Assembly (NCBI RefSeq): GCF_016097555.1
Contig: NC_054702.1
Coordinates: forward strand, 76,077,679-76,141,678
Direction: 5' to 3'
From: Gigantopelta aegis
Lineage: Eukaryota > Mollusca > Gastropoda > Neomphalida > Peltospiridae
Length of the DNA stretch: 64,000 nt
The translations under genes and the position numbers were made by a program. The notes under the pieces are model-generated. The model was not told the DNA's origin. It was given only the letters and a program-made list of their open reading frames with translations, and made no database searches. Below are positions 6,936 through 36,378 of the stretch, piece by piece. Each line of letters opens with the position of its first letter. Positions within the stretch are counted from its first letter, which is position 1.

Positions 6936-6938
6936 CTA

Positions 6939-10400: not shown

Positions 10401-13400
10401 AGACCTATTTGTTTGTTTTGTGTTTTTTATTTGGTGTGGGACGATATAGGGGAGGTTAGGGTTTCTTGTTTGTGTGAGGTATTTTTAATGTTTTAATGCA
10501 TTTTACACTTTAACCTTTTTTTTTTAAGAATCTAACAAATCTAAATAATTTTGCAATGCTTGATGTACTTTTTTTTCTTATTTTTTTTTCTTCAACAAAT
10601 ACAGAACAAATGTAGGCCTATTTAATCAACAAAACCACTTACCTGCTGGGGTGGGTCAACTGACCGATTTGGCTCCTCATTAATTAGCTGTGGACCTATG
10701 TTTATCCTCGGAATTTTAAAGATATAACTAAATACATGGCGTCAGTTGTTTCATTTTCAGCAGTGACTACAGTAACAACTACTAAGGTAACGGAGGAGGA
10801 ATCGGGTGAGAGAACTATTTAACATTACATTTTGTATTACGTGTTTACTGAACTCCATTGAAAACACACCCGTCAGATTTGTAATTGTAAAAAGGATGCT
10901 AGAAGAATTAACGCATCTGACTGAGTTTGTATAATTGAATGTATTCTGGTAGTACACCGTGATTGGGCCAACGTAAACAGTAGGCCTACCATTGGCCCAA
11001 CGTAGACTGCCAATGTTGGCACATGGTCATTTTGACCGTTGGACCATCACTGATTTACTGTTGCTAATTTCACGTTGCACCAACGGTCTGCTGACGTTGT
11101 GGCAACATTTTCATACCACACTATAGAATTGGCCCAACGTTGTGACATTTTCAAACTAAGTTATATACATCAACTTCTCATTGGCCAATGTAATTAAGAA
11201 TAACAAAAGTACAGATGTAACATTTATTATCGAACTACATATCAATCTTGTTCATCATCCGGCCTCGGTGGCGTCGTGGCAGGCCATCGGTCTACAGGCT
11301 GGTAGGTACTGGGTTCGGATCCCAGTCGAGGCATGGGATTTTTAATCCAGATACCGACTCCAAACCCTGAGTGAGTGCTCCGCAAGGCTCAATGGGTAGG
11401 TGTAAACCACTTGCACCGACCAGTGATCCATAACTGGTTCAACAAAGGCCATGGTTTGTGCTATCCTGCCTGTGGGAAGCGCAAATAAAAGATCCCTTGC
11501 TGCCTGTCGTAAAAAGAGTAGCCTATGTGGCGACAGCGGGTTTCCTCTAAAAACAGTGTCAAAATGACCATATGTTTGACGTCCAATAGCCGATGATAAG
11601 ATAAAAAATCAATGTGCTCTAGTGGCGTCGTTAAATAAAACAAACTTTACTTTTTGTTCATCATCTTTCTCGGATTGCGACGACGACGACGTCGCCATGG
11701 CTGCTGGCCTCGCACGTTGCCTCTCCTCAAGTGCTGCAGTGAAGAATACAGAAGATAAATATGCCATACTAACATATTTTCAACATTTCTGTCTCAAATA
11801 TACACATGAAATTATTTTCAGTTAAAGTATATACCACTGAATTAAAAAAAAAACCTTGTTCGTATGTATTATCAGTATACGCAAATGTTAGAATATTACT
11901 GTTATTAAAAAAAGAAGAAGCATATAACATTTCCCACGGGTACTTATTCATAATTCTAAAACTAAATAACCAGTTAGATGTCTTTCCACATACAGATGTG
12001 ATATTCAACTAGGCTTTCTCTCATTTTGTTCCGTGTTGATGCACATTACTTCATGTAAATGTCCTCTTTGTTGTGTCTTAGTTCTTGATTAATTTTTTTT
12101 ATCATTCAGTGTTACACATTAAATATGTTTAGAAAGATATAATAACATTTTCTTTGCGCTATACATGGGCGTACATGTTGAGTTTTGAAAAGGGGGGTTC
12201 CAAAATAGATTGCAGAGATTTTGGGCATATATTTCTATGTTGAGTAAATATAATAATGTCAGATATCAATGTCAGATATATTAAATTTAAAAAAAGCGAT
12301 TTCAGGGGGGGGGGGGGGGGGGTTTCGGTCGAACCCCCCCCCCCCCTCCATATGCACGCCCATGCTGTACACTTTACGGCAATCTGATTGGTCTAGAGGT
12401 GCTCACTTTTTTTGCGTTCATATGTCGATGAACCAAACATATTTAAGCCACCCCTACCCCCATCCCCACGCCTGACTCGCACTACTGTTCTGCAACTAGC
12501 CGGATTATTCAGGCAACCTGTGACGGTACATGCTCTTAATTTGTTTCGCCTGTGGCGATATTAATTGTTTTAGAAGGCCGTGTGCAGTTTCATTGCACTT
12601 AGCTAGGTGAGCAACTTGTTACGTAATACTTCTGCGCGATGGTCGTCTAATACACACCCAGAGCAGGTGTGGAGGCCATGTGGCCAGTAGTTACGTAATA
12701 CCTCCGCGCGACCGTGGAATCTCTAGCGAACTGGCGACATTAAGTCTGACGATCTGAGGGAAAAAAATATCAGATGATAAGATTCGGTGCCGCGATTTAC
12801 CCCCAGGCGATATTTCGATTTATAATAAATAGCTAGAGTTTTAGAGTTATGAAAAAAACGAAAAAGGACGGCTCCCAGGGAACGTAGTCCGTTGGACTTT
12901 GGTAAATATTTTATTTCTGCTCTGTTGTATAACCGTGATGTGATTGATGTGACTTTAAATATTTTAATACTGTATTATACCAATATTCTTTAGACAGTGT
13001 CTTCGGTCATCTGACGAAGTAAATCGTAGTCTTACTGGTCTATATTTATACGAGTATTTGGTAATATAAAGCTTAGCCAGTCATCCTAGAAGACCTAGGT
13101 AAACTGTAGGTTATTGTCTTTATTGTGATAGGTACCAGTATTAATTCTGTGTTACAAGGTTACTGAATGAGTAGTTAAGGGTTAATTAAAAATTAACCAG
13201 TAAGGAATAGAGTGGTAATTCCTTTATTAATTAACTTCTCCTAGAAGCGTTTCTCAATTATCACACGTGTGGGTGTTGTGTCACGGTAAAGTGATTAGCA
13301 TATTGTGTAATCTAAACACCTAGAGATTAACTAATTAAGTGATCAGTTCTGGGTTGTTATTATTGTTGTTATTAATTAACTACTACGGCTGTACATTTGT

Positions 13401-15234: not shown

Positions 15235-15333
<99 letters not shown>

Positions 15334-18300
15334 TGGTTTTTTATCATTAAAATCGGACATTACTTAGATTTTAGTGTTTATAATATCCATTTCCGAACAT
15401 CCGAAGTGTTTCTGGTCATCTTGGTGTTTGTAATATCTTGAAATGCATTTTTCATATTTTGAAAACCCCATGTACTTCTGAGAAGTAACGGTTAGGGAGA
15501 CAAGCTTTAATCTATATTTAAGAGTATTTTCCCCCATTTCAACATCACAAACTCTTGTTTGACTGTTGTTATAACTTTATCCAGTTGTGTTACAGGTTTG
15601 TAGATTGATCAAACTTTATACATGTCCATTTTTAGGGATTGAAACTATATAAACTATATATATACCAGCAGTTAGTACTAGCCATTTCCGATTTTATATC
15701 TGAATAATAATGGCCTTTTTTAAAATTAACAACTAACAAAATGTATCATTTAGTAAATGATACATTTTTTATCATATTTTTCTTACCGTATATAAAAATA
15801 ATTATCTCGCCTTCTTGTAAAATTCTTTAATCTCATTGGTTGTTTGCCGTTGGACAAATCCCTTATACCCCTGTGGGCGGAGCCAAATTCTCTTATACCC
15901 CGTCTGTAATTTCCAAAAGTTTCCAGCCACCCCAGTTAATGCTAAAGCAATAATTAGATTATAAATAACATTGATAATCAATCAATATTGCAATAATTTC
16001 GTATTACAAACATTTGAAGTTAATTAAAAATTCGTTTATCGATGGAACTATTTTTCGTAACTGGCAAGTGGTTTCGTTCGCGTCCGCGTGGTACGGCTCC
16101 GTTAATAAATTGTTAACAATTATTATCTGGCGTTATTTTTATTATTTGGCTATATGGTTTAACATGTCGGCAAGATGGCTTTTAATGTACCCTCTATGTG
16201 CTCTTTTACCCCTCGCCTTCGGCTCGGGATAAAAGAACACAGGGTACATAAAAAGCCATATTCTCGGAACCGGCGTGACGTCACACGGCCTAGTTACCGA
16301 TCATCCGGGTCTTTGGGGGTGAAGCAAAGCCTTGGTGATTACTGGTTTACATAGAATAAAGTTATCATATTAACTTTTTACATGCCATACATATTGTCAT
16401 TTATTTTCTGTAGCTAACACATAGTTGCAATACGTCTTATGTGTATTATAACAGCTTGGGTTGCCATATAAGAGAAACGAACAACGGGAATCTGAATTAG
16501 TATAATCTATATTTAGTACCGATGTGTTGATGCAATTTTCAGGTAATGTTAGGTCTCACTACACAGATGTCATCTGCCATTGAAACCCATGTTAAACTGC
16601 CCAACTTCAAGTGAAGATTGCCCATAGAACGGGTTCTCGTTGGCACTAACAACATACACCATTGCAAACATACATTATATAAGCATTTATTTTCACTCCA
16701 AAATTGAGAACATTTCCGTCTCAGTTTTTTGCTATATGACCGCATCTGGCTGTAGTACCGGTCCGAATAGGTGGTTCATTAACCGATTCACTCCGGCTGT
16801 CACTTGCGCTATATACCCATGTCCCAAAAGGTCGATGCACAATATTACAAAATAACATGGGCAAAATACAGCCAGAAGGCTTACCATTAAACATACATAT
16901 TGTTTTAATTCTTCACCATTTGCTAGAAGTGAATATGTGACCCATAACATGTGTCCCAGTTAGGAACTATAGTGGACCGTGATGAATGAACTGTCACCCG
17001 GAAGTGATCTGTGTAGTGAGACCTTAAAGTCTAGTGACCGATTTTGTCAAACTTGGTTTGAAGTCAGTTTGATAATTTGGGTCATTTACACCATGAAAAG
17101 CTATACTAGAGCCATGTAACTTATAACTCTAACCAATACACCAAAAGATAGATGCACCATACCATGCAATAAAACTTCATATCACATTGTTACTCCTTGG
17201 TCATCCACACAATAGATGGTCATCAAACAAGCAGCCACTATATGGTAATGTATGACCTTGTTGGTAGTTCTGATATGGGGAACATACCAAGAAGCTAATT
17301 ATCTAGTTAGTTCATTAAAAATATTAGTTTCCATCAATTGTTGCTATGGGCAACAATTGTTTCATAATGAAGTGTTGAAATCCTGTTTTTTTTCTGTATA
17401 TTTCAGCATGAAGATCCACATATTATTAATGGCAGATACAAATTCTACTTTCATAGTAGAATACTATGTTATATATTCACAATACCATCAAAACTGTGTG
17501 TCATTATGACTGTACATTCGAAAAAATGCATTATGCACAAAATCACAGAAATTAGGGTGAATTTGGATATTGACCTTGTGACCTTGAATTTTGACCTTTT
17601 ACAATGAGAAACTCAGTGTTAAACACTCAGATCAATTTATTTATTACATGTAAGTATACTAGAATATACATTTTGACACACACACCCCTAAAAAAAGAAA
17701 AAGAAAAGAAAAAAAAAATAATAAAAATAGATAAAATTGACGTTTGCAATATTTACCCAAATAGGGCCCCCATACACTTGGCTGAAATCCACATCGATGT
17801 AATTACCTTTTATAAGGATGCTACACTAGTACATTTTCATTTTGGCTTGCTAAACTTATATATTTTGGGATAGACAGTAATTTCATGTTTTACATTATGG
17901 TCTCACTACACAGATGTCATCTGCCATTGAAACCCATGTTAAACTGCCCAACTTCAAGTGAAGATTGCCCATAGAACGGGTTCTCGTTGGCACTAACAAC
18001 ATACACCATTGCAAACATACATTATATAAGCATTTATTTTCACTCCAAAATTGAGAACATTTCCGTCTCAGTTTTTTGCTATATGACCGCATCTGGCTGT
18101 AGTACCGGTCCGAATAGGTGGTTCATTAACCGATTCACTCCGGCTGTCACTTGCGCTATATACCCATGTCCCAAAAGGTCGATGCACAATATTACAAAAT
18201 AACATGGGCAAAATACAGCCAGAAGGCTTACCATTAAACATACATATTGTTTTAATTCTTCACCATTTGCTAGAAGTGAATATGTGACCCATAACATGTG

Positions 18301-21300
18301 TCCCAGTTAGGAACTATAGTGGACCGTGATGAATGAACTGTCACCCGGAAGTGATCTGTGTAGTGAGACCTTAATTATAAATTTTAACAATTTTGAAATG
18401 ATAAGATAATTATTAATATAATAATTATGATGTGGGCTACAAAATATATAATTTGTATTTATAATAAAATTTGTATGCATGATTAACTTAATTATTTTTA
18501 TGATTTAATAATTATTTTATTTCTAAATAATATGTAATGATTAAACAATGGCAAAGTTGTTACTTTACAAGTTCAAAATTACAATAGTATTATTGTCATA
18601 TCTTATATAGATGTATTGGCAACAGTATAATGTTCCACTGAATACATTCTTTTATTCTTAAAACAAAATAGTTTCTTGAAATAATGAAATGCTTTTGTTT
18701 TTACAGATTGCAAAATTACCACATGATGTTGCCCTTCCTTACCGGTTGAATGCAGGCAACAAAAAATAGCAATAATAAAATATAGCCATTCTCAGACCTT
18801 GACATCTAGGGGGAGCAATATCTCTCTCTACTTACCCATCACACCTGAGATTAGTTTCAAGAAGAATAATATATAGTTTCCTTTGGCATGTGAATTTATA
18901 TACATGTAGTATCAATATGGTAATCTTTTAAATTGCCCCCCATAAACTACATTAGGGAGCAAATAATCCGTTCCCTCAGTTATTTACCCTCTGCACCAAA
19001 GTAAATACTAAATGGGGGGGGGGTGGGGGTGGGAACGACTTATATTTTCTTACACATTTGCAAAAAAAAAAAAAAAGTTTAAAAAAGAATTTAGGCCTAT
19101 ATTATAATTATTATATGTGTGTAATTTAGCAGTATAAACTTTTATTTTAAAATTAAAAAATAAATAAATAAGATGTAGTAGCTGTGGTATGGCAAAACAA
19201 ATACAAGTATAAATAATATACAAGCAACTAAGATTAAATGAAAAATAAAGACCACACAAATTTAATGATAAAGGAATATACTCTTTATTCAAGAACTGGA
19301 TGCATCGTTTTGTTGGGGGGGGGGTTTCATGGAAGACGATGGAATTGTGTATTTTATTTACAGTATAATGTGGGATTTTTATCACTGCACATGCTTTAAC
19401 CATTTTGTTTGCTAAATTAATCTCTGTTGGTGTCAACAAGCAACAACATTAAAGTCAACGTAGTCACATTCTGTGAGGGAAGCCATGAAATTTCATCAGG
19501 TTTGTCATTTTAATGACCCTACCCACAAGCGGCGCCTAGTCTCTTCTTTTGAAAATGTGTAAAACGATATTTGTTTTAACATGTTATGGTTTATGCAGCC
19601 AACTGCACAACATGTGTTGGGAATCGTGACAGTTAACTGTTGTAAATGATCGACCAAAGTTGCCTCATTTCACTATCAAACCATACGTAACTAAGGAGAA
19701 GCTTCACCACGTCACATGATAAACAATGGCAGCCAGGGGTCGAAGTACCCGTATGTTCGGTTCCGAGAATACCCCTCGTGATGCTTATATTATATATAGT
19801 TTACTGTTAATAGCATTTACTCTGAATAAATCATTGGTAGAAATCATAGAGGAAAGAAAGAAAGGAAATGTTTTATCTAATGATGCACTCAACACATTTT
19901 ATTTACGGTTATATGGCGTCAGACATATGGTTAAGGACCACACAGATTTTGAGAGGAAACCCGCTGTCGCCACTACATGGACTACTCTTTCCGATTAGCA
20001 GCAAAGGATCTTTTATTTGCGCTTCCCACAGGAAGGATAGCACAAACCATGGCCTTTGTTGAACCAGTTATGGATCACTGGTCGGTGCAAGTGGTTTACA
20101 CCTACCCATTGAGCCTTGCGGAGCACTCACTCAGGGTTTGGAGTCTGTATCTGGATTAAAAATCTCATGCCTCGACTGGGATCTGAACCCAGTACCTACC
20201 AGCCTGTAGACCGATGGCCTAACCACGACGCCGGTAAGTATATAGAGGATACTCCCCGAGTGTCTTGTGATATCATAATTTATCAGCACGAATTGATAAA
20301 AGTATGAAATCCGAGGCTTGTACTTTTATCAACGAGTGCCGATAAATATGTTTTAATCCCCAAGGGATGGGTCGTTTTTATTGAAAAGTGGACCTTTTGT
20401 ATTACAATTTTATGCCTATTTGTTTGTTTTGTGATTTTTGTTTGTTGCGGGAGGCGGATATAGGTTGTTGGGATTTATTGTTTGTGTGTGGGTATTTTTT
20501 TATGTTTCAGTGCATTTTACACTTTAACTTTTTTAAGGAATCTAACAAATCTAATTAAGTACTGTATTTTGCTTTGCTTTTTTCCTTGACAAATACATCT
20601 AACAAATGTATTTAAACAACAAAACCCCTTGTGTGCTGGTGTGGGTCATCTGACTGCTTTGGCTCCTCATTAGCTATGGACCTATGTTTAAAGGTATAAC
20701 CAAATACATTGCTCCAGTTGTTTAATTTTCAGCAGTGACTACAGTAAAAACTACTGAAGAACCACCAGCATTGGCGGACTCGGGTGAGACATATATTGAA
20801 CATTTGTATTACGCGTTTACTGAACTTCATTGAAAATACACTGGTCAGATTGGGATGTAAAAAGGATAGAGAAGAAATAACACATTTGACCAAACCCCCA
20901 AAATGTTATGGTGAGGGTCAAGGTCAGGGTGAAGGTTACGATCTAGCATGCATGTCTACAGAAGTATAGTGAACGTGGAACAGTGGTAGTTATAACTGGA
21001 CCTCGGTTGCCTGTAACTATGTGTCATCCTAGCAGCTGGAAGTGTCCCAGTGGCAGATACAGAAAATCCATTGGGGGGGATGACATGTCCGTGGCGTAGG
21101 AAGCGCGGCGATGGGGGGGGAGGGGAGAGAGAACTTTTTGGCACCGGCCACAAGGAATTCCTCGGATTCTCCAACATAAAATAAAATAAATAACCCCCTA
21201 GATCCACCACTGTGTACAATCATATACTTAAAAGATGTGTGCATAGTGTTGTCTGGGTATGGTCATATCCGGGCCTGGGGTGATCTTTTGGTGAAATCTG

Positions 21301-24300
21301 TCTGCTGGATGTGATTTTACGTCTTATTGTTGGAACACGCCATAGTGTGTGTGTAGACATTCCAGCATGATGCCAAATAAGAGTTCACTTTACTGGGGGG
21401 TGGGGGGTAACCATAGCATTACAGTTATATTAGATGTGATCTACCAGTCTTTTTATTTGCTGAAATTTTTCAATCTACCAGTAGATCTAACACCATTGCG
21501 TGGACTCCCATCTGCAGGTGACGTTTCATCTATAAATAACAATTTAAATATCGACCAATTACACTTCGCCTTTTCTAGCATTATTTGGAAGCATACAAAT
21601 TCTAAAAATATCGGGCGAGACTATTTATGCAAACGGCAAACTTGTTTGTTTTTTTCAACATTAAAAAACGGGGAAAATTTGTGAGCAGTAATAAACTCTG
21701 GATCATATACTAGTATAAACAGATTTTATGACTATACAATCACGAGGGTTTTTTCGCCTTGAAACAAATTTTATATAAAAGTTTGTATTGAAATTAATTT
21801 CCGGCATACTTAGTAATTCACCCGAATAATTTCGTATACCCATCGGCATAATCCCGAATGTTTTCAAATTCTTTTCAAATCACTGGCATGATTTTGCAAG
21901 TAAGGTTTTGATTAGTCGAATGAAAGGTCAACTGGACATGAGATCCAATGGGATGCTGTTAGATCCACAGGTAATAGTAATTAACCAGTGGAGTTAATTT
22001 TAATTAGATTAGCAACTTTCAATCTATGTTATTGACTAAAAGAGACTTTTAACAATTGTAATTAAATATCAAAACTATGGAAATATTGTACATATCCAGT
22101 GTTCGACAAATGTTTGAAAAAGTCACTAGCCCTCACAGAAGCTTTGGCTAGTGCCCTGTGTAATATAGTAATATACTTGATCGTTTTTAGTAGCCGAGAC
22201 GAAAAAGTTACTAGCCAGGACTGAGGACTAGTGGATTTGTCGAACCCAGATAACCATGGAGTGCAATACAGAAAATATTTTTTTTGTAATATTTCTTCAG
22301 CAGCTATTAGATGTAAAACATACAGTAACTGTGACACTATAGCAGATCAGGGTAGTGTTAGACAGGACAGCACATACATTGGCCACTGAGCTGTCAGAAA
22401 GTATAGGTCCATCAAAGTGTATAGGTCATACCACTGGTCTACCAATGACTTACTGGTACATTATGTTCCCACTGATTACACCTGTATTTTAGTCACTGCA
22501 AATCTACCAATGACTTACTGCATATTGTGTTCCCACTGATTACATCTGTATTTTACAGTCACTGCAAATCTACCAATGACTTGCTGCATATTGTGTTCCC
22601 ACTGATTACATCTGTATTTCACAGACACTGCAAGTCTACCAATGACTTACTGCAGATTGTGTTCCCACTGATTACATCTGTATTTCACAGTCACTGCAAG
22701 TCTACCAATGACTTACTGTACATTATGTTCCCACTGATTACACCTGTATTTTACAGTCACTGCAAGTACCAATACCAACTGACTTACTGTACATTATGTT
22801 CCCACTGATTACTGATTACATCTGTATTTTACAGTCACTGCAAGTCTACCAATGATATTGTTACTGTACATTGTATGTTGCAAGTCTACCAATGACACTG
22901 ATTACACCTGTATTTTACAGTCACTGCAAGTCAAATGACTTACCAATGACTTACCTGTATTTTACAGTCACTGCAAGTCTACCAATGACTTACTGTCATT
23001 ATGTTCCCACTGATTACACCTGTATTTTAGTTACACCTGTATTTTAGTCACTGCAAATCTACCAATGACTTACTGCATATTGTGTTCCCACTGATTACAT
23101 CTGTATTTTACAGTCACTGCAAATCTACCAATGACTTACTGTACATTATGTTCCCACTGATTACACCTGTATTTTACAGTCACTGCAAATCTACCAATGA
23201 CTTACTGCATATTGTGTTCCCAATGATTACATCTGTATTTTACAGTCACTGCAAGTCTACCAATGACTTACTGCACATTATGTTCCCACTGATTACACCT
23301 GTATTTTACAGTCACTGCAAATCTACCAATGATTTACTGCATGTTGTGTTCTCACAGATTACATCTGTATTTTATAGTCACTGCAAGTCTACCAATGACT
23401 TACTGTACATTGTGTTCCCACTGATTACGCCTGTATTTTACAGTCACTGCAAGTCTACCAATGACTTACTGTACATTATGTTCCCACTGATTACACCTGT
23501 ATTTTACAGTCACTGCAAGTCTACCAATGACTTACTGGTACATTATGTTCCCACTGATTACACCTGTATTTTAGTCACTGCAAATCTACCAATGACTTAC
23601 TGTACATTATGTTCCCACTGATTACACCTGTATTTTACAGTCACTGCAAATCTACCAATGATTTACTGTACATTATGTTCCCACTGATTACACCTGTATT
23701 TTACAGTCACTGCAAGTCTACCAATGACTTACTGCACATTATGTTCCCACTGATTACACCTGTATTTTACAGTCACTGCAAATCTACCAATGATTTACTG
23801 CATGTTGTGTTCTCACAGATTACATCTGTATTTTATAGTCACTGCAAGTCTACCAATGACTTACTGTACATTGTGTTCCCACTGATTACACCTGTATTTT
23901 ACAGTCACTGCAAATCTACCAATGATTTACTGCATGTTGTGTTCTCACAGATTACATCTGTATTTTATAGTCACTGCAAGTCTACCAATGACTTACTGTA
24001 CATTGTGTTCCCACTGATTACGCCTGTATTTTACAGTCACTGCAAGTCTACCAATGACTTACTGTACATTATGTTCCCACTGATTACACCTGTATTTTAC
24101 AGTCACTGCAAGTCTACCAATGACTTACTGGTACATTATGTTCCCACTGATTATACCTGTATTTTATAGTCACTGCAAGTCTACCAATGACTTACTGTAC
24201 ATTATGTTCCCACTGATTATACCTGTATTTTATAGTCACTGCAAGTCTACCAATGACTTACTGTACATTATGTTCCCACTGATTATACCTGTATTTTATA

Positions 24301-27300
24301 GTCACTGCAAGTCTACCAATGACTTACTGTACATTATGTTCCCACTGATTACACCTGTATTTTAGTCACTGCAAATCTACCAATGACTTACTGTACATTA
24401 TGTTCCCACTGATTACACCTGTATTTTACAGTCACTGCAAGTCTACCAATGACTTACTGCACATTATGTTCCCACTGATTACACCTGTATTTTACAGTCA
24501 CTGCAAATCTACCAATGATTTACTGCATGTTGTGTTCTCACAGATTACATCTGTATTTTATAGTCACTGCAAGTCTACCAATGACTTACTGTACATTGTG
24601 TTCCCACTGATTACACCTGTATTTTACAGTCACTGCAAATCTACCAATGATTTACTGCATGTTGTGTTCTCACAGATTACATCTGTATTTTATAGTCACT
24701 GCAAGTCTACCAATGACTTACTGTACATTGTGTTCCCACTGATTACGCCTGTATTTTACAGTCACTGCAAGTCTACCAATGACTTACTGGTACATTATGT
24801 TCCCACTGATTATACCTGTATTTTATAGTCACTGCAAGTCTACCAATGACTTACTGTACATTATGTTCCCACTGATTATACTGTATTACAGTCACTGTAT
24901 GACTTACTGTACATTATGTCCCACTGATTACAATTTTAGTCACTGCACTACCAATGACTTACTGTACATTATGTTCCCACTGATTACACCTGTATTTTAC
25001 AGTCACTGCAAATCTACCAATGATTTACTGTACATTATGTTCCCACTGATTACACCTGTATTTTACAGTCACTGCAAGTCTACCAATGACTTACTGCACA
25101 TTATGTTCCCACTGATTACACCTGTATTTTACAGTCACTGCAAATCTACCAATGATTTACTGCATGTTGTGTTCTCACAGATTACATCTGTATTTTATAG
25201 TCACTGCAAATCTACCAATGATTTACTGTACATTGTGTTCCCACTGATTACACCTGTATTTTACAGTCACTGCAAATCTACCAATGATTTACTGCATGTT
25301 GTGTTCTCACAGATTACATCTGTATTTTTTAGTCACTGCAAGTCTACCAATGACTTACTGTACATTATTTTCCCACTGATTACACCTGTATTTTACAGTC
25401 ACTGCAAATCTACCAATGATTTACTGCATATTGTGTTCTCACAGATTACATCTGTATTTTATAGTCACTGCAAGTCTACCAATGACTTACTGTACATTAT
25501 GTTCCCACTGATTACACCTGTATTTTACAGTCACTGCAAATCTACCAATGACTTACTGTACATTATGTTCCCACTGATTACACCTGTATTTTACAGTCAC
25601 TGCAAATCTACCAATGATTTACTGTACATATTGTGTTTTTACAGTCACTGCAAATCTACCAATGATTACACATTATGTTCTGATTACACCTGTTTTTACA
25701 GTCACTGCAAGTCTACCAATGACTTACTGTACATTGTTCCCACTGATTACACCTGTATTTTACCCACTGATTACACCTGTATTTTACAGTCACTGCAAAT
25801 CTACCAATGACTTACTGTACTGCATATTGTGTTCAGTCACTGCAAGTCACAGATTACATCATGTATTTTACAGTTACACTGTATTTTACAGTCACTGCAA
25901 GTCTACCAATGACTTACTGTACATTATGTTCCCACTGATTACACCTGTATTTTACAGTCACTGCAAATCTACCAATGATTTACTGCATATTGTGTTCTCA
26001 CAGATTACATCTGTATTTTACAGTCACTGCAAGTCTACCAAAGACTTACTGTACATTGTGTTCCCACTGATTACACCTGTATTTTACAGTCACTGCAAAT
26101 CTACCAATGATTTACTGCATATTGTGTTCTCACAGATTACATCTGTATTTTACAGTCACTGCAAGTCTACCAATGACTTACTGTACATTGTGTTCCCACT
26201 GATTACACCTGTATTTTACAGTCACTGCAAATCTACCAATGATTTACTGCATATTGTGTTCTCACAGATTACATCTGTATTTTACAGTCACTGCAAGTCT
26301 ACCAATGACTTACTGTACATTATGTTCCCACTGATTACACCTGTATTTTACAGTCACTGCAAGTCTACCAATGACTTACTGTACATTATGTTCCCACTGA
26401 TTACATCTGTATTTTACAGTCACTGCAAGTCTACCAATGACTTACTGTACATTATGTTCCCACTGATTACACCTGTATTTTACAGTCACTGCAAGTCTAC
26501 CAATGATTTACTGCATATTGTGTTCTCACAGATTACATCTGTATTTTACAGTCACTGCAAGTCTACCAATGACTTACTGTACATTATGTTCCCACTGATT
26601 ACACCTGTATTTTACAGTCACTGCAAGTCTACCAATGACTTACTGTACATTATGTTCCCACTGATTACACCTGTATTTTACAGTCACTGCAAGTCTACCA
26701 ATGACTTACTGCATATTGTGTTCCCACTGATTACATCTGTATTTTACAGTCACTGCAAGTCTACCAATGACTTGCTGTACATTGTGTTCCCACTGATTAC
26801 ACCTGTATTTTACAGTCACTGCAAGTCTACCAATGACTTACTGTACATTATGTTCCCACTGATTACACCTGTATTTTACAGTCACTGCAAGTCTACCAAT
26901 GACTTACTGGTACATTATGTTCCCACTGATTATACCTGTATTTTACAGTCACTGCAAGTCTACCAATGACTTACTGTACATTATGTTCCCACTGATTACG
27001 CCTGTATTTTACAGTCACTGCAAAATACTACCGTCTTACACCAACTGGGACTATTGTAATAGTCTTCATTGCGATTCCAATATTAATTCTCCTCGTGGCT
27101 ATAACAGTAAAGTACGTGTTGAAAATCAAAAAGAAGAGGTACCAGCTGTTCAAGGTATAGCTTCATTAATCATTGTTACCACAGGAATTTGATAACCATC
27201 TGTTATTTAATATACACCTGGAAATTTATTAAGCATCATCCAACTTTTGACCATGTGGCTTATACTTCGCAAGTAAATGTAAATCATTCATGAATACAAA

Positions 27301-29976
27301 ACATTGAACATTATCAGTGTTGTTACATCAATAATTAATGTACTTTAGTGAAAATTACAGAAACCATAAATATACATAGGAATGTATTTTACTGCACCAC
27401 AGTAGAAGAGATACCCATGCAGGGCTAGAAATGAAAAAAAAAACTACATGCACCAGGTGCATGCTGAAAAAAAAGTTACATGCACCATTAAAATTCTGCA
27501 TGCACCAAAAATAAGGTAAATCCTGTTAACAATGAGGAAAATACTGTTTTAATTACCTTGATTACGATTGAAATAATCACTGGCTGACTTCGAGTCAACT
27601 ACGCGAGTAACGCACCTGCACGTTTGCAATCATCTGATCAAGTGCCCATATCTGAGGTTGAAAATGTTCAAGGCAGTTACGGTACTTTGTATTGATCACA
27701 GATCTGGCGAGATATTGCCGGCAATTTTTGCAAATATATTTCACGAAAATGACCAAAAGGGCGCCATTGTTGTAAGTAGGATAATGGGATACAAAATGGA
27801 TGCGCCCATAAGATAAAAGTTATCGTTTTCAAGTGGCGAACAGATTACGAAATGCATACACAAAATTCAACAACTTGAGTCTGAATCTGGTAAACAACAG
27901 GATACTAGTATACGCAATACACGGTACTTGAAAAATATTAGCATGCACCGCGTGCACCCCGTTTTAAAAGTTACATGCACACGCAAAAATCAGCATGCAC
28001 CGGTGCATGTACTAACACTGCATTTCGAGCCCTGCCATGTGGTAGTTATCGTCTCTTCACATTGTGGAATATGTCTTTTGAGAGGCCATGATCTCCGATC
28101 CTGTGATCAACTGTGTCACACAGTACAACTCTGCACAGATATTTTACGGAAAGTATGCACATGGTTCTTTCGATTCATATTTATAAATCGGAAAAATACT
28201 TCCTGTCAATTCTTATAATTAATATTAGAAGCATAATTTAACAAAATATATATTTTAATAATTTAGTTTAGCCTTGAATATGTTTATACTATTGTTGATG
28301 TAAAGGTCATTGATAGATGTGTGACCTAGGAATGCAAAGTTTTGTTGATAAATAGCTAAATACAGTAGCCACAACATGACATCATTTTGCATGGTGCTCA
28401 ATTCATTTCCAGGTGTATATCATAAAAAACCATACTGAAACAATGCCACCCCACCCATAAATCTTGTGATGGTTGTGGTTAGTATTGGTGTACAACATAT
28501 TTAATGACATTTACCAATAACTGTGACATTTAAACCTGCATTAAAAACATATTTCTCTAAAGTTATTAGCTTTTAACCAGTTTTTAATTCAATGTAAAAA
28601 CTACTGCAAATATAATTAAGTTCAAATGTAACCCAATAAGATGGATGGCCAAACTGCTAGTGGTTTTAACATAGATACATGTGTAATTTGAGAAACTAGT
28701 GTTTAATTAGCTCATGTGCATGGATAAGCTTATTTAAAGAATATGTTTGTTTCCGACTTTAAAATGATTAAATAGTTAATGCATTCGTACTTAATATATA
28801 TGCCAGTGAAATCTGTCTTTATGATAATGTCTTCACAGGGATTTATCCAGGCATTCTGTGTGTCTGAAGGGCAGAACATAGCCCAGTGGTAAAGCATTCA
28901 CTTGATGCCCGGTCAGTCTGGGATCGATCCCCATTGGTGGGCCAATTGGGCTTTCTCGCTCCAGCCAGTGCACCACAACCGTTATATCAAAGGCCATGGT
29001 ATGTGTTATCCTGTCTGTGGGATGGTGCATATGAAACATCTCTTGCTTCTAATCAAAAAGAGTAGCCCATGAAGTGGCAACAACGGATTTCCTTTCTCAA
29101 TATGTCCTTAACAATATGTCTAATGCCATATAACTACATAAAATGTGCTGAGTGTATTGTTAAATAAAACATTTCCTTCTGTTTGTCCGAAGATACAGGT
29201 AGGCCCCTTCCCAAAAGAAAGCAGCATTTAAAATTCTCAATTTCTATGCTAAAAATTCCCAATATATATACTTAATATATGTATGTTGTAATAAATTAAT
29301 TTAACAGTGGTAAAATGCAGATTTCATTAAAAGGACATTCCTGAGTTTGCTGCATTGTAAGATGTTTCCGACTAATAAAATAGTTCTATGATTAAACTTA
29401 TATATTAAATATAGTTTCTTGTTTAGAATATCGATGTCTGTATATTCAATGTGTTTTTGGTTGTCTTAATATTTGTAAGAAGCCCAAATTGGATTTGGTC
29501 TTCAAATAATTTCGTATGTACGGGAAAAAAAATTGGGAAAATAAAATGAAATTTAACCTAGTACAAATATTAAAACGATCAGAAACACATTTAATATACA
29601 GCCACTAATATTTTATGCACAAAAATATATTTGATATGTAATTACAATTGCTAAAAAGTCTCTGTTAGTCGATAACATTTTAAAAATTGCAGCAGACTCA
29701 GGAAGGTCCCTTTAAGAAAACCAATCAGATTCATTCTTAAAAAATTATCTGAGAATATGAATAAAATACAAGTTAACAGCAATACTCGGTATAGTGTATA
29801 AAGTTGTTTATATAATTTCTGTATATATACAAAAAATTATTTCTTGAATTTGGTAACTGGTAACTCATTTATTATCCTCTTTGTGTACACTAAAACTTAC
29901 TTAAATTACAATAACATATTTGCAACAAACTCATGATTGGTAATTTATATTTCAGATGGTTCTACTTTACCAGTAA
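7495..29976 (+). CDS. candidate single-pass membrane protein with duplicated Thr/Glu stalk exon
   Basis: Exons proposed: 7495-7587, 10761-10805, 20733-20783, 27015-27154 and 29956-29976. The first three are 93, 45 and 51 nt, all divisible by three and phase 1-1; the fourth enters in phase 1, so every junction up to it agrees. Exon 1 (strong acceptor CTTCTTGCAG, donor GTAAGT) encodes HCCVSGWLLVLLPG, leader-like. Exons 2 and 3 encode Thr/Val/Glu-rich stalks. Exon 4 encodes YYRLTPTG, about 20 hydrophobic residues (IVIVFIAIPILILLVAI) and a basic KIKKKRYQLFK. Exon 5 would add MVLLYQ and stop; without that splice the protein stops two codons after exon 4. The start codon must lie upstream and was not found. 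I do not recognise the family. Function unknown; a surface stalk or receptor-like role is only suggested by layout. The proposal needs transcript support. Confidence 0.45.
7795..9394 (+). mobile_element. Tc1-family DNA transposon, full length but inactive
   Basis: A 1600-bp element with 24-bp terminal inverted repeats (CTACTCAAAAGAATTTAAGG... at 7795 and its complement ending at 9394), flanked by TA on both sides as expected for Tc1/mariner. It sits in a (TA)n tract in the first visible intron of the membrane protein gene. It contains one damaged transposase reading frame. Confidence 0.92.
8159..9183 (+). pseudogene. Tc1 transposase, DD34E type, broken
   Basis: Starts MVRLQLTIEDRGRAIAWL with an N-terminal helix-turn-helix (AIAWLQDGNTQRNVALRLGV) and a linker RPRSGRP. 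The catalytic core follows: RFGGGSVMVWGGIS, HDDNARPH and SPDLAPVEHAWDELGR. The second Asp and the Glu are 34 residues apart, as in Tc1. Damage seen: a one-base type frameshift near 8410 between TTTAR and RDNLRT, an in-frame TAG near 8590 just before the first catalytic strand, and the first catalytic Asp replaced by Tyr (FTYESRF where the family has FTDESRF). It ends GGFTHY and TAA, the usual C-terminus. The copy cannot make active enzyme. Confidence 0.9.
9440..9645 (-). repeat. dispersed C/G-run repeat, copy 2
   Basis: Complement of the repeat at 3890-4065, lying just downstream of the Tc1 element. It carries two poly(C) runs (about 9512-9523 and 9617-9629). Confidence 0.65.
9690..10065 (+). 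pseudogene. relic of a second Tc1 transposase
   Basis: In shifting frames the sequence reads VMVWAGIND, then FMG..LNVQHYSDEIIAPFV, then LGRSLQENHAHIYNLN and MGISRRCALS. These match the catalytic core and C-terminal tail of Tc1 transposases (compare VMVWGGIS, GNLNGIRYLNEIIRPLV and VRDNHAPPANLHDL of the neighbouring element). The Asp-Asn-Ala-Arg block and the termini are gone. It is much older than the neighbouring copy. Confidence 0.7.
10250..10925 (+). repeat. segmental duplication, copy 1 (contains stalk exon 1)
   Basis: Aligns with 19790-20892: the shared stretch runs from TGCTGTTAATA and TTTACTCTGAATAA through ATGTTTTAATCCCCAAG, AGTGGACCTTTT, the exon, and TGTATTACG.GTTTACTGAAC to AAAAAGGAT. 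The second copy is longer because it holds a SINE and about 110 bp of other sequence. Confidence 0.85.
10761..10805 (+). CDS. stalk exon copy 1
   Basis: A 45-nt phase 1-1 exon between TTTTCAG and GTGAGA encoding VTTVTTTKVTEEES plus split codons. It lies in a segment (about 10250-10925) that is paralogous to 19790-20892, including intron flanks. Being symmetric and in frame, it can be gained, lost or skipped without disturbing the reading frame. Confidence 0.5.
10960..11200. repeat. cluster of TTGGCCCAACGT motifs
   Basis: The words TTGGGCCAACGT, TTGGCCCAACGT, GACCGTTGGACC and GCACCAACGGTC recur in both orientations over 240 bp, with short palindromes. Probably a foldback-type repeat; ends not resolved. 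Confidence 0.5.
11260..11653 (+). mobile_element. full-length SINE, head type A, with target duplication
   Basis: Head GGCCTCGGTGGCGTCGTGG with a B-box-like GGTTCGGATCCCAG, a core containing GGCCATGGTTTGTGCTATCC and AAAAGATCCCTTGCTG, and a 3' end GTTAAATAAAACAAACTTTA. A perfect 12-bp target duplication TTGTTCATCATC flanks it at 11248-11259 and 11654-11665. Confidence 0.95.
12164..12364. mobile_element. MITE with CATGGGCGT ends and G/C runs
   Basis: Begins CATGGGCGTACATG and ends CATATGCACGCCCATG, an imperfect terminal inverted repeat. Inside are long poly(G) and poly(C) runs near 12306-12322 and 12334-12346. Family not assigned. Confidence 0.5.
12519..13636 (+). mobile_element. solo LTR of an LTR retrotransposon (fossil)
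   Basis: A 1118-bp segment begins TGTGACGG and ends CCGTGACA, that is TG...CA, and is flanked by the 5-bp duplication CAACC (12514-12518 and 13637-13641). No internal coding region and no second LTR are present, so it looks like a solo LTR left by recombination. The end motif and 5-bp duplication suit a Gypsy/BEL-type element. The intact duplication suggests it is not ancient. Orientation is not certain. Confidence 0.8.
14030..14244 (+). repeat. dispersed repeat (GTGCACATTCAGAACAAGCT family), copy 1
   Basis: From AGGTCAGGTCATAGGGTTTT to GGTAGCAGGCGGGTG this matches the complement of 41602-41821 nearly base for base. Probably a SINE-like element; at 41800-41821 the other copy carries a short (CATGA)n tract. 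The short open frames in both copies (about 62-78 codons) are part of the repeat. Confidence 0.8.
14545..14800 (-). repeat. dispersed repeat, copy 2 (pair with 3593-3725)
   Basis: The complement contains GGGTCGAAGTTCGAGGTGCA, ACCACAAGTCCTGTGATTGG and AATGTGAGTGTGTTGGTTGT, as at 3593-3725. The 70-codon minus-strand frame here is not supported as a gene. Confidence 0.6.
15085..15205 (+). mobile_element. SINE fragment (core only)
   Basis: Contains AAAGGCCGTGGTATGTGCTA, AAAAGATCCCTTGCTGCTAA and AGAGTAGCCCATGAAGTGGC, the shared SINE core in its type-B form. Head and tail are missing. Confidence 0.75.
15239..15331. repeat. (TA)n(GA)n compound microsatellite
   Basis: About 33 bp of alternating TA is followed directly by about 58 bp of alternating GA. 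It produces spurious Ser-Leu and Tyr-Ile frames on the minus strand. Confidence 0.97.
16177..16257. repeat. 81-bp hairpin, GGCTTTT...AAAAGCC
   Basis: GGCTTTTAATGTACCCT pairs with AGGGTACATAAAAAGCC; the inner arms pair through GTGCTCTTTTA/AAAAGAACAC to CTCGCC-TTC-GGCTCG. Such a stem is typical of a foldback element tip; no gene is implied. Confidence 0.75.
16552..17023. mobile_element. 472-bp MITE, copy 1
   Basis: Ends GGTCTCACTACACAGAT and ATCTGTGTAGTGAGACC form a 17-bp terminal inverted repeat. TTA lies directly outside both ends, a 3-bp duplication of the kind PIF/Harbinger elements make. It has no transposase; frames of 68-72 codons inside it occur identically in copy 2 and are not supported as genes. 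Confidence 0.9.
17899..18370. mobile_element. 472-bp MITE, copy 2
   Basis: The same 472-bp element in the same orientation 875 bp downstream; I see no difference from copy 1. The left flank is TTAT and the right flank TTAA, so the 3-bp duplication is less clear here. Flanking sequences of the two copies differ, so this is separate insertion and not a block duplication. Confidence 0.9.
18371..19789. other. intronic or intergenic, no firm gene
   Basis: AT-rich DNA with poly(G) near 19014 and 19314. At 18707-18769 an acceptor-like TTTTTACAG precedes a short frame (KLPHDVALPYRLNAGNKK, then stop). This could be a stray terminal exon, but no partner exon was found. Confidence 0.35.
19852..20233 (-). 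mobile_element. SINE, head type A, GAAA tail
   Basis: Minus-oriented: (GAAA)n, TGTTTTATCTAATGATGCAC and the shared core come first, and the head complement CTAACCACGACGCCGG ends near 20233. It is absent from the paralogous segment at 10.3 kb, so it inserted after the duplication, or was lost there. Confidence 0.85.
20733..20783 (+). CDS. stalk exon copy 2
   Basis: A 51-nt phase 1-1 exon, paralogue of 10761-10805: both open CAGTGACTACAGTAA and close with TCGG|GTGAGA. It encodes VTTVKTTEEPPALADS, six nucleotides longer than copy 1, with Pro/Ala added. Confidence 0.5.
20893..22100. other. intron, no feature supported
   Basis: Poly(G)-rich patches near 21075-21125 and 21395-21408. A 111-codon frame at 21349-21684 has no recognisable domain and no good splice context, so it is not called. 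Confidence 0.35.
22101..22245. mobile_element. small MITE with GTTCGACAAAT ends
   Basis: GTTCGACAAAT at the left and ATTTGTCGAAC at the right form an 11-bp terminal inverted repeat; CACTAGCC and GGCTAGT words continue the inversion inward. A degenerate relative is at 38316-38420. Confidence 0.65.
22432..27024 (+). repeat. 66-bp minisatellite carrying a 3' splice site
   Basis: About 4.6 kb of a 66-bp unit, roughly 65-70 copies by length. A typical unit runs TCACTGCAAGTCTACCAATG, ACTTACTGTACATTATGTTC, CCACTGATTACACCTGTATT, TTACAG. Two main unit types exist: one with TTCCCACTGATTACACC and one with TTCTCACAGATTACATC. They alternate in patterns that themselves repeat (for example about 23.7-24.1, 24.4-24.8 and 25.0-25.3 kb), so the array has higher-order structure. 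Short or rearranged units lie near 22840-23050, 24890-24960 and 25620-25880. The last unit merges with the acceptor and start of the exon at 27015. Because 66 is divisible by three and one frame lacks stops, long frames of up to 451 codons appear, with a 22-residue period (YSHCKSTNDLL..MFPLITPVF). They are not in the exon's frame and are not called as genes. Confidence 0.95.
27015..27154 (+). CDS. transmembrane exon next to the 66-bp array
   Basis: Acceptor TGTATTTTACAG ends at 27014; donor AAG|GTATAG. The frame set by the stalk exons gives a Tyr-rich start, a clear transmembrane helix and a Lys-rich stop-transfer segment. The acceptor and the first ten exon bases (TCACTGCAAA) are also the junction of the last 66-bp minisatellite unit. 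Confidence 0.6.
27419..28034. mobile_element. non-autonomous DNA element, CAGGGCT ends
   Basis: Ends CAGGGCTAGAAATG and CATTTCGAGCCCTG are inverted copies; further in, TACATGCACCAGGTGCATG and its relatives recur several times in both orientations. A 5-bp duplication CCATG flanks it at 27414-27418 and 28035-28039. No transposase frame. Superfamily not assigned. Confidence 0.75.
28870..29176 (+). mobile_element. SINE, head type B, with target duplication
   Basis: The head ATAGCCCAGTGGTAAAGC with B-box-like GGGATCGATCCCC is tRNA-like. The core GGCCATGGTATGTGTTATCC follows, and the 3' end is GTTAAATAAAACATTTC. Flanking 16-bp repeats TTCTGTGTGTCTGAAG and TTCTGTTTGTCCGAAG (28854-28869, 29177-29192) differ at two positions, so the insertion is fairly old. 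Confidence 0.9.
29331..29711. mobile_element. TTAA-flanked MITE (piggyBac-like)
   Basis: The left end AAGGACATTCCTGAG and the complement of the right end AGGGACCTTCCTGAG match, and the similarity runs on through GTTTGCTGCA and beyond for about 50 bp. TTAA directly flanks both ends (29327-29330, 29712-29715), the target of piggyBac-type elements. 381 bp, no coding capacity. Confidence 0.8.
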
Positions 29977-30545
29977 CCCAATCAGTAACACAAAGCAGGA
30001 TGAGGAAAAGAAAAGCTGGACACGGTCTCCGGAGCAAAATTGTTTCAAGATTGTCTTCCAAGAGACAAAACTCTTCCTAGAAACAAAATTCTTCCTAAAG
30101 ACAAAACTCTTCCTAAAGACACAACTCTTCCTATTTAAATATTGCTCTTGAACACTTATTTATCAGTAATATGGATAAAATATATTAATCTATGAATGAA
30201 AACTGGTTATAATGTAAAATGTTTTTAAAAAAAATTCTAAAATATATAATATATATATAATGTATCACAAGCACATTATTTACTGAGATGAAGACAATAT
30301 TGGAAATATGTTTAATGTTTTTTTTTTTTTTTTTAAAGAAACACAGTAGCAACTAAACAGTATAAAACTCCCAACATTAAAATGCTTGAAAACACTTTAT
30401 TCTGCACCAACATTAATGTATACATTTGTTAACTGATTTATACATGTATTTGTGTTTTTATATATTAATTTATAATCATAACACACACACTTTTATTTGG
30501 ATAAAATCAATATCTATGTGCAATAATAAAAAAACATCTTTATTG
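29956..30545 (+). other. proposed last exon and 3' UTR of the membrane protein gene
   Basis: Acceptor TATATTTCAG ends at 29955. In phase 0 the exon reads MVLLYQ and stops. Other frames give longer tails (for example RMRKRKAGHGLRSK) but would need an unseen exon to set the phase. An 18-bp repeat ACAAAACTCTTCCTAAAG occurs about four times at 30061-30132. AATAAA lies at 30525-30530. Confidence 0.3.
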
Positions 30546-31518
30546 CAGAATTCACTCTACCATAGTGTATGTGTTCATGATATCATTGTCCATAACAATC
30601 TTTAGTAAATAAATTCGAACACATTATAAAATTTAAATGCACAAAAAAATATTTCTGTATTAATATTTTCAATTTCCTATTATATATCCAATTCTTAACC
30701 ATTTGTTAGTTCATAAATGAGATCGACAAAATTTGTGGGCAAAGTAACATTAAAAGCAGTCTAGTAGATAAGCATGGGATGCCTAAATGCTTTTCAATAT
30801 ATATAAAATGTTTTATTTATTAACAACACAAGAACACCTGCTGGAACCTTTAATTTTCTATTTCATTTTTCCAAATGGCTAAATTCTACTTACACCCCTG
30901 TGAAGTATTTTATTCTTCTTACAATAAATCATGAAAAAACCCAAGTGTTATTTTATGTACTAAGAAAACTAAACTATAAAATACCATGCCAAGACACTAG
31001 CCTACTAAGAATATCACTGATGAGAAGTACAGTTAAGTTACTTCTTTTGTCATGATATCAACCAGATCACGTAGTGTAATAAAGGGTTTTAATTTAATAA
31101 ATAATATCTGAATAAATCACTTCATAATCTTTATAAATACATTCATGGACAGCATGTCAGACAAAATACAAATCATATCTTCTCTAACCATCCTTAGTTT
31201 CAAAGTTGGTGAACTATGGATTTCACGATGAAATTATTGGTATGCATATTATATGGATATCTAAAACTGTAACTATATCTGTCAAGGGCTATCGACCGAT
31301 CTGTGCTATGAATTGATCATGCTGCATCATCAATGGAAGAAGCAAGAAGTAATAATCTTACTCTATTATCGACAATACATACATTATTTTATTTTTAAAT
31401 CGTCTTTACATAATTAATTCACAATAAAAGTCGTTAATTATATTGGAATTAAATTATGCAACCTGCTCGTTAATTGGCTATCATTACAATTAATCAGGGT
31501 TTTTTGTTTGTTTTTGTG

Positions 31519-31549
<31 letters not shown>

Positions 31550-31654
31550 TTTTTGGGGGTAATAATACATCTAAAAAATGCTGACAATAACACCAATATT
31601 GCCTCTTTTGGGACACTTCCCATACTACATTGACCCTTGCTGAAAACTAACAAC
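30546..31654. other. intergenic, no gene seen
   Basis: AT-rich sequence with a poly(T)/poly(G) block at about 31520-31555. No splice-supported frame was recognised. Confidence 0.4.
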
Positions 31655-32567
31655 TAACCATTGATGGTGCAGTGTGATCAACCAATGCTTGCATGATCGA
31701 CTGATGGCTATGTTAATGACGGATCCATTGATTGTGCAGTGTGATCAATTGATACTTACGTGATCGACCAATGCTTGCATGATTAACCAATGGCAACGTT
31801 AATGACGGATCCATTGATTGTGCAGTGTGATCAATCGATACTTGTGCGATGGACCGATGCTTGCATGATCGACCGATTGCTATGATATTGATGGATCCAT
31901 TGATGGTGCAGCATGTCAATAAATACTTGTGTGATGGACCGATGCATTATCGACCAATTGCTACGTTATTGATGGATCCATTGATGGTGCAGTGCCTCAA
32001 TCAATACTTGTGCAACTGACCGATGCTTGCATGATCGACAGATGGCTAAATTAATGACTGATCCATTGATTGTGCAGTGCGATCAATTGATACTTGTGCG
32101 ATCAACCGACGCTTGCATGACTGATCAATGGCTACGTTATTGATGGATCCACTGATGGTGCAGCATGATCAATCGATACTTGTGTGATCGACCGAAGGCT
32201 ACGTTAATGATGGATCCACTGATGGTGTAGCATGATCAATCGATACTTGTGTGATCGACCGAAGGCTACGTTAATGATGGATCCACTGATGGTGTAGCAT
32301 GATCAATCGATACTTGTGTGATCGACCGATGGCTACGTTATTGATGGATCCACTGATGGTGTAGCATGATCAATCGATACTTGTGTGATCGACCGATGGC
32401 TACGTTATTGATGGATCCACTGATGGTGTAGCATGATCAATCGATACTTGTGTGATCGACCGATGGCTACATTATTGATGGATCCACTGATGGTGTAGCA
32501 TGATCAATCGATACTTGTGTGATCGACCGATGGCTACGTTAATGATGGATCCATTGATGGTGCAGGT
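31655..32567. repeat. 67-bp GATC-rich minisatellite
   Basis: On the right side the unit is 67 bp (GATCCACTGATGGTGTAGCA, TGATCAATCGATACTTGTGT, GATCGACCGATGGCTACGTT, ATTGATG), with starts such as 32281, 32348 and 32415. Left-hand units contain an extra segment of about 22 bp (GACCGATGCTTGCATGATC). Right-hand units are more uniform, suggesting recent expansion there. Confidence 0.9.
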
Positions 32568-32699
32568 TGAATTAATTGGGCAAATCGGTTGGACACCTGA
32601 CATATCTAAACATATACAATTAGAACCTTTCTATTTAAAAAAGTTAAGCATAGTGTTTCTGGTAGTTTAGAAATGCTACACTAACACATTCAATTTTCT

Positions 32700-32990
32700 A
32701 ATGGCAGGGGCTCACCCAAGCTGCTTGTGTCATAGGATTGAACCCCCTCAGTGGACCCACCCGTGTTTTGTTTTGCTATATCTACCAGTGTCCATTGATT
32801 TGTATATTTAAGGCTCTGATATGTGCTGTGCTGTCCTGTCTATGGTGAAAGTGCACATAAAAGATGCTAATACTGCTAATGAAAAAATGAGTTTCCTCTG
32901 AAGACACCATATCGGAATTATCAGACATTTAACAGCCAATGATTCATTAATCGTGCTCTAGTGGTGTTGTTAAACAAAATAAACTTTTTT
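32700..32990 (+). mobile_element. SINE, diverged
   Basis: A weak B-type head (TAGGATTGAACCCCCT), the core word ATATGTGCTGTGCTGTCCTG, and the tail GTGCTCTAGTGGTGTTGTTA with AACAAAATAAACTTT. Older than the 11.3-kb and 40.3-kb copies. Confidence 0.75.
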
Positions 32991-35900: not shown

Positions 35901-36378
35901 TTACGAGAGTAGTGAACTGAATAATTTTAAGTACAAAATGCAGGCAGTGGTTGGGCAGCAAAAGCTACCAAAAATCATTGCAACCTAATAAACTCCATAT
36001 TTTCCCTCTCATACACAATACAAACACTCAATTCATAGTTGAAACGTCATTATCTGACTAACTATGGACCATGCAGAGTTAAATGTTGATGTAGGTTGGC
36101 ACACTTGAATACATTTGAAAGTGTTTTATAAACCACTGATTAGAGAAGGAACAGTCGTGTAAAATGATTAACCTGCACACGTGCTTGTACTTGAAGTAAC
36201 TCTGTGCCCACCACGAGGTGCTGATGTTCAACATGAACTGCAGTGTGCAAACTAAGCAGTGCCCAAGAGCATGACCAGCTTGTTGTACGGGTATGCAAGA
36301 TATGCCATGCTACACTCTCAAAGTGAACGAGGCCCTGAGCTGTGTCTTTGTTAAATTCCCCATAGCAACAGAAGGTCT
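32991..36378. other. intergenic and KLHDC3 3' UTR side, repeats only
   Basis: Holds a dispersed repeat (35597-35790) that pairs with 6655-6935. A less AT-rich patch near 34440-34672 ends ACCCTACCTTTAAGG and may be a TTAA-type element whose other end I could not place. The 3' end of the minus-strand KLHDC3 transcript must lie in the upper part; its poly(A) signal was not fixed. Confidence 0.4.

What the first reader, a model, noticed from the sequence alone, without database searches (positions are those of the whole stretch)
22432..27024. Minisatellite that multiplies a 3' splice site some 65-70 times
Each complete 66-bp unit contains TGTATTTTACAG followed by TCACTGCAA, which is exactly the acceptor and first bases of the transmembrane exon at 27015. 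The exon and the unit also share looser similarity a little further in (CTACC..CTTAC). So the array seems to have grown out of the intron-exon junction itself, placing dozens of decoy acceptors before the real one. In the stalk-exon frame any upstream unit reads VTASLPMTYCTLCSH and stops, so use of a decoy would give a protein without its membrane anchor. A splice-driven switch between membrane and soluble forms is possible but is inference.
Basis: partly seen in the sequence, partly recalled or inferred. Interest (0 to 1): 0.82.

Follow-up and report, generated by a model that had tools for sequence, protein, structure and literature searches.

The report
Minisatellite grown from a splice junction
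In a mollusc genome, a 66-base stretch that carries the end of an intron and the first nine bases of a probable membrane-anchor exon has been copied about 70 times in a row, giving some 67 look-alike splice sites before the real one; this is probably a large example of a known kind of repeat that splicing largely ignores.

Summary
The array is real: 22437-27023, 70 units of mostly 66 bp, with no other match found in the 1.15 Gb genome (69 of 69 matches, a lower bound). It starts at unit position 10 and stops at position 9, nine bases inside the exon at 27015-27154, as in-place duplication of one segment (57 intron plus 9 exon bases) would leave it. There are 68 AG|TCACTGCA acceptors, the real one included, and site strength does not mark the real one (rank 16 of 68). 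"Any unit reads VTASLPMTYCTLCSH" holds for 26 of 67 decoys. Still, 66 of 67 decoys stop inside the array, one shifts the frame of the anchor exon, and none keeps the anchor. Tandem repeats of intron-exon boundaries are known from amphioxus ("mirages") and reported not to disturb splicing. I file this as a very large mirage in a mollusc. Splicing most likely uses the last acceptor; decoy messages would be candidates for nonsense-mediated decay rather than a stable soluble form. No transcript, relative or second haplotype could be tested, and the gene's first and last exons were not found.

The parts
22437..27023 (+). Minisatellite: 70 units, mostly 66 bp (57 intron-like bases ending TGTATTTTACAG plus TCACTGCAA); degraded or rearranged units at 22757-23113, 24829-25002 and 25597-25891
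26949..27014 (+). Last unit, carrying the real branch region and acceptor AG at 27013-27014; one base from the consensus, and that variant (G at unit position 52) recurs in internal units
27015..27154 (+). Probable membrane-anchor exon (V)TAKYYRLTPTGTIVIVFIAIPILILLVAITVKYVLKIKKKRYQLFK, phase 1 in, phase 0 out, donor GTATAG; one clear copy in the genome
20733..20783 (+). Stalk exon 2 (Thr-rich, 51 nt, phase 1-1, donor GTGAGA), upstream partner of the array intron
10761..10805 (+). Stalk exon 1, paralogous to exon 2 (45 nt, phase 1-1), within the duplicated segment 10347-10921 ~ 20362-20890 (75% identity)
20784..27014 (+). 6.2-kb intron that hosts the array

Best explanation
A single 66-bp segment, made of the last 57 bases of an intron (with its CTGAT branch-like motif, weak pyrimidine tract and CAG) and the first 9 bases of the membrane-anchor exon, was duplicated in tandem in place. 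It then grew, probably by block-wise unequal exchange, to 70 units inside a 6.2-kb intron. The original junction survives as the right edge of the array, so the gene keeps its real acceptor, preceded by 67 near-identical ones. The pre-mRNA is most likely spliced mainly at the last acceptor, which lies 140 nt from the exon's own donor and pairs with it across the exon. Occasional use of the nearest decoys (exons of 206, 273, 339 nt and so on) would give messages with an early stop, most likely removed by nonsense-mediated decay. It is a neutral or mildly costly mirage-type minisatellite. Shown here: anatomy, phase, no second location found, reading frames. Inferred: in-place origin (strong); choice of the last acceptor and decay of decoy products (moderate, by analogy; decay also needs an exon after 27154, which I did not find).
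For: Both ends of the array share one phase (starts at consensus position 10, ends at position 9). All 69 listed genome matches to the unit are in this array. The flank 22254-22437 had no match among the 40 of 687 candidates scored, apart from itself; the anchor exon has one clear match by protein and one by DNA (40 of 495 candidates scored). The left flank does not continue as a degraded unit. Variant units recur in blocks. The exon is credible: it is the only frame of 40 residues or more with an AG, a 19-residue uncharged hydrophobic run, a strongly basic tail and a GT in 144 kb read on both strands, and its phase fits both stalk exons. PMC3087553 (passages) describes minisatellite-like duplications of the 3' end of an intron plus the 5' part of the exon in amphioxus, with RT-PCR suggesting undisturbed splicing; PMC3902484 (passages) says the Adh and TnC mirages give no aberrant mRNAs. 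PMC9225289 (abstract and section 9): with long flanking introns, splice sites closest across the exon are favoured. Of 66 decoy stops, 66 lie at least 159 nt before the 27154 junction.
Against: No transcript data. In PMC9225289 section 9 the upstream preference among 3' splice sites of similar strength is significantly reduced in the long-intron class, not said to be reversed, so decoy use cannot be excluded; the length of the next intron here is unknown. PMC3087553 notes that repeat copies could serve as cryptic splice sites. In BflGb6 the edge units are left out of homogenisation, whereas here the last unit is one base from consensus. The real acceptor is not the strongest (rank 16 of 68 by a hand-made matrix), and the anchor exon's own sites (6.4 and 4.9) fall below the thresholds of my blind exon scan (6.5 and 6). 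First and terminal exons were not found, and Pfam on the + strand of window 1-20001 and 27157-37157 gave only a transposase and sub-threshold matches, so the gene model is incomplete.
Confidence: 0.72

Rival explanations
1. Regulatory switch or tuner: some transcripts use decoy acceptors, giving either a truncated soluble protein or a decayed message, so that copy number sets how much membrane-anchored protein is made.
For: 67 decoys, many of similar strength (by my count of the list, 49 of 67 score 6.2 or more against 6.4 for the real one); 0 of 67 keep the anchor; upstream 3' splice sites are preferred overall in PMC9225289 section 9; PMC3087553 allows cryptic use of mirage splice signals.
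Against: No transcript evidence; stops at least 159 nt before the next junction in 66 of 66, so a stable soluble protein is unlikely by the usual decay rule (recalled); no AATAAA or ATTAAA in the array; amphioxus cases are reported to splice normally.
Confidence: 0.1
2. The exon at 27015 is not a real exon: the array is an ordinary intergenic or intronic minisatellite and the AG|TCACTGCAA edge is coincidence.
For: First and last exons were not found; no clear homologue of the anchor peptide elsewhere in the genome (best other hit E 1.4); stalk exons diverge about as much as their flanking introns (by eye); the exon's own splice sites score modestly (6.4 and 4.9).
Against: Anchor plus stop-transfer pattern is found once in 144 kb on both strands; the phases of stalk 1, stalk 2 and the anchor exon agree; stalk 1 tops a blind scan for phase 1-1 exons from 4680 to 20730 (3 rows).
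Confidence: 0.15
3. A mobile element carried the array in, and the exon borrowed its acceptor from the last unit.
For: A short inverted-repeat element at 22101-22245 sits about 190 bp left of the array, and other copies (for example in L030) carry their own 64-bp internal tandem array.
Against: No significant match between the 66-bp unit and the three copies compared; the 66-bp unit was found nowhere else; an imported array need not begin and end in the same phase.
Confidence: 0.03

Closest known systems
Amphioxus 'mirages' (globin BflGb6/BflGb9, Adh3, TnC; similar repeats in PGBD5)
   Same: Minisatellite-like tandem copies of an intron-exon boundary; many units carry splice signals; concerted evolution of units; BflGb6 copies the 3' end of an intron plus the 5' part of the next exon, as here (passages of PMC3087553; PMC3902484).
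   Different: Here a mollusc, 70 units against 6 and 3 in the two BflGb6 haplotypes, only 9 exon bases per unit, and the edge unit shares in the turnover, whereas BflGb6 edge units do not. Length instability and normal splicing are not tested here.
Human internal tandem repeats at exon-intron boundaries in segmental duplications
   Same: Minisatellite units across a boundary; can create new introns or splice patterns (PMC2812944, passages).
   Different: On average 30-bp units repeated 4 times, in recent paralog families; here a locus with one clear copy and 70 units.
Alternative 3' splice sites / membrane-versus-soluble isoforms
   Same: Upstream acceptor use would remove the membrane anchor.
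   Different: No evidence of use; decoys arise from repeat growth and end in stops far before the next junction.

Membership tests
Mirage (intron-exon boundary minisatellite) | Head-to-tail tandem repeat of minisatellite unit size | tested here: met
   66-bp unit, 70 copies
Mirage (intron-exon boundary minisatellite) | Repeat spans an intron-exon boundary, so units copy the splice signal and exon bases | tested here: met
   Units end CAG (or TAG) and begin TCACTGCAA = exon bases 27015-27023; 68 AG|TCACTGCA. Depends on the exon being real (one search supports this; no transcript).
Mirage (intron-exon boundary minisatellite) | Concerted evolution / block turnover of units | tested here: met
   21 distinct 66-mers among 50, recurring in blocks; judged by eye, no formal test
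Mirage (intron-exon boundary minisatellite) | Length polymorphism between haplotypes or cells | not testable with these tools
   One assembly held; the anchor exon gave one clear match
Mirage (intron-exon boundary minisatellite) | Regular splicing of the mRNA despite the repeats | not testable with these tools
   No transcripts at hand
Functional decoy-acceptor switch | Transcripts that join the upstream donor to decoy acceptors | not testable with these tools
   No RNA data
Functional decoy-acceptor switch | Decoy use gives a stable truncated protein (stop outside reach of decay, or a poly(A) site in the array) | tested here: inconclusive
   66 of 66 stops at least 159 nt before the 27154 junction and 0 AATAAA/ATTAAA in the array speak against it, but the 27154 junction and the decay rule in this animal are assumed, not shown

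The most novel reading that the evidence does not exclude
The copy number of the array tunes the output of the membrane-anchored protein: spliceosomes lost to decoys make messages that are destroyed, so alleles with more units make less anchored protein, and a few decoys near the exon give a measurable secreted form. It would be a length-variable splice rheostat built from the junction itself.
Probability: 0.07. Interest if true: 0.78.

Novelty: new member of a known kind. Interest (0 to 1): 0.4.

Why it matters
It extends boundary-spanning minisatellites to a mollusc and to about 70 copies. My searches showed no molluscan case in their listings; the one molluscan paper listed, PMC3862624, speaks of microsatellites in introns in the passages I saw. 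The library lacks most subscription papers. The locus is a natural test of how the spliceosome picks one acceptor from some 68 similar ones, mostly 66 nt apart: reads across this intron would show directly how quickly decoy use falls with distance from the exon's donor.

Tried and rejected
Exon similarity beyond base 9: chance level. Left flank as a further degraded unit: chance level. Array as a dispersed or transposon-borne satellite: no support. Recursive splicing: units read AG|TC, not AG|GT, by inspection. Pseudo-exons inside units: five CTG|GTACAT donors score 4.6, close to the exon's own 4.9; possible, not pursued. Selection on the repeated AG: unit columns 65-66 are invariant in 50 of 50 full units, but so are 49 of 66 columns, so it says little. 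Naming the gene: Pfam on + strand stretches of window 1-20001 and 27157-37157 and of L013 and L014 gave only a Tc1-like transposase, sub-threshold DUF3915 matches, and an adaptor medium-subunit match (E 1.1e-5, below its curated cut-off) in L014; the stalk-plus-anchor peptide gave nothing above noise (best E 0.094); scans for first and last exons gave no first-exon candidate and three unconvincing last-exon ones. L009-L012, window 20002-27156 and 37158-64000, and the minus strand were not scanned this way. Genome sampling for other boundary arrays was not possible. In one search the coordinates I gave for the adaptor-like exons were partly off, so those rows are not used. A paper search on competing splice sites led to PMC9225289.

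Full report
What is there. Tandem Repeats Finder places a 66-bp repeat family between 22437 and 27023. A wraparound alignment of the region to the consensus TCACTGCAAGTCTACC...TGTATTTTACAG splits it into 70 units; the first starts at consensus position 10 and the array ends at position 9. Its last nine bases are 27015-27023, the start of a frame that is open in the phase set by the stalk exon 20733-20783 and encodes a hydrophobic anchor with a basic tail. AGTCACTGCA occurs 68 times, the real acceptor included; 50 of 67 intervals are exactly 66 bp. The longer junction motifs were not found elsewhere in the window, and all 69 genome matches listed for the unit lie here (3 candidates scored, and the tool calls such counts lower bounds).

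Is the exon real? There is no transcript. Indirect support: in 144 kb read on both strands it is the only frame of 40 residues or more with an AG, a 19-residue uncharged hydrophobic run, a strongly basic tail and a GT. Its acceptor phase matches two stalk exons, of which the first, 10761-10805, tops a blind scan for phase 1-1 exons between 4680 and 20730 (3 rows: two for this exon, one at 7495-7587). The stalk segment 20362-20890 has one 75% copy, 10347-10921; the other 15 of 17 genome matches cover only its end. Against: stalk exons diverge about as much as their introns (by eye), the anchor exon's own sites score 6.4 and 4.9, below the limits of that scan, the anchor peptide has no clear homologue in the genome (best other E 1.4), and I found neither a first nor a last exon.

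How the array arose. If a segment is duplicated in place, the array begins and ends in the same phase; this one does. The segment would be 57 intron bases plus 9 exon bases. A nearby element at 22101-22245, common in the genome (687 first-look candidates, 40 scored), has copies with a 64-bp internal tandem array, but the 66-bp unit shows no significant match to the three copies compared (L029, L030, L031). Variant units recur in blocks (by eye), which suggests unequal exchange. The last unit has one change from consensus, shared with internal units, so the unit with the real acceptor seems to take part in the turnover; in amphioxus BflGb6 the edge units do not.

What the decoys would do. By a hand-made acceptor matrix the real site scores 6.4, rank 16 of 68, so it is not marked by strength. 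A YTRAY motif lies 45 to 16 nt upstream of 50 of 68 acceptors. Read from the stalk frame, 66 of 67 decoys stop within the array, one (26882) runs through the anchor exon in the wrong frame, and none keeps the anchor. The exact peptide VTASLPMTYCTLCSH comes from 26 of 67; others read up to 457 codons because of insertions, deletions or loss of the TGA. All 66 stops lie at least 159 nt before the 27154 junction, and the array holds no AATAAA or ATTAAA. By the usual rule for nonsense-mediated decay (recalled), such messages should be destroyed, provided that an exon follows 27154, so a stable soluble form is unlikely.

Which acceptor is used. In PMC9225289 (abstract and section 9 read) splice sites closest across the exon are favoured when flanking introns are long; for 3' sites of similar strength the strong upstream preference is significantly reduced in that class, not said to be reversed. 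With 6.2 kb of intron upstream and an own donor 140 nt away, the last acceptor is the best candidate; the nearest decoys would define exons of 206, 273, 339, 405 and 471 nt and are the likeliest competitors. This is inference; the next intron's length is not known.

What it resembles. [quoted passage not shown] PMC3902484 (passages) says the Adh and TnC mirages give no aberrant mRNAs. PMC2812944 (passages) reports human repeats at exon-intron boundaries that can make new introns. The original Adh paper is not held. The genome here is a mollusc's: the hemocyanin beta-sandwich family (molluscan, recalled) matches at 5.8e-33 and in 0 of 14 control genomes, and PDB hemocyanin chains match a frame from it. 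So this is a new, very large member of a known kind, in a lineage for which my searches listed no case; the one molluscan paper listed, PMC3862624, was seen in passages only and speaks of microsatellites.

Verdict. In-place growth from the junction is well supported. A regulated membrane/soluble switch is possible but has nothing positive for it; silent decoys or decay are more likely. Interest lies mainly in its being a ready natural test of acceptor choice.

Noticed in passing
22101-22245: Short inverted-repeat element (ends GTTCGACAAAT / ATTTGTCGAAC), 687 first-look candidates genome-wide; other copies, such as that in L030 (1556-1883), have their own 64-bp internal tandem array.
   Followed up: partly
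16552-17027 and 17899-18374: Two 476-bp copies, 100% identical, ending GGTCTCACTACACAG / CTGTGTAGTGAGACC: looks like a recently active inverted-repeat element.
   Followed up: no
10347-10921 and 20362-20890: Local duplication that carries a stalk exon; both acceptors read CAGCAG (two AGs 3 nt apart), so one-residue splice variants are possible.
   Followed up: partly
23358, 23819 and similar (12 TCTCACAG in the array): A second type of unit has CAGATT in place of CTGATT: this removes the branch-like motif and the TGA and creates an extra AG acceptor scoring 7.5-7.7, above the real one.
   Followed up: partly
8039-9180, + strand: Tc1-like transposase frames (HTH_Tnp_Tc3_2 and DDE_3).
   Followed up: no
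about 3353-4674, + strand, and L014 near 5861-6004: Probable exons of an adaptor-complex medium-subunit gene (Pfam 1.1e-5 in L014 and a weak 0.089 for the C-terminal part, both below the curated cut-off); the name AP5M1 is recalled, not tested.
   Followed up: partly
41122-44787, - strand: Kelch gene; two joined pieces match Kelch domain-containing protein 3 of the PDB at 8.1e-46.
   Followed up: partly
31672-32562: Another minisatellite with 67- and 86-bp units.
   Followed up: no
27420-27554: Part of a high-copy dispersed repeat downstream of the anchor exon (495 first-look candidates, 40 scored, 92-99% identity).
   Followed up: no
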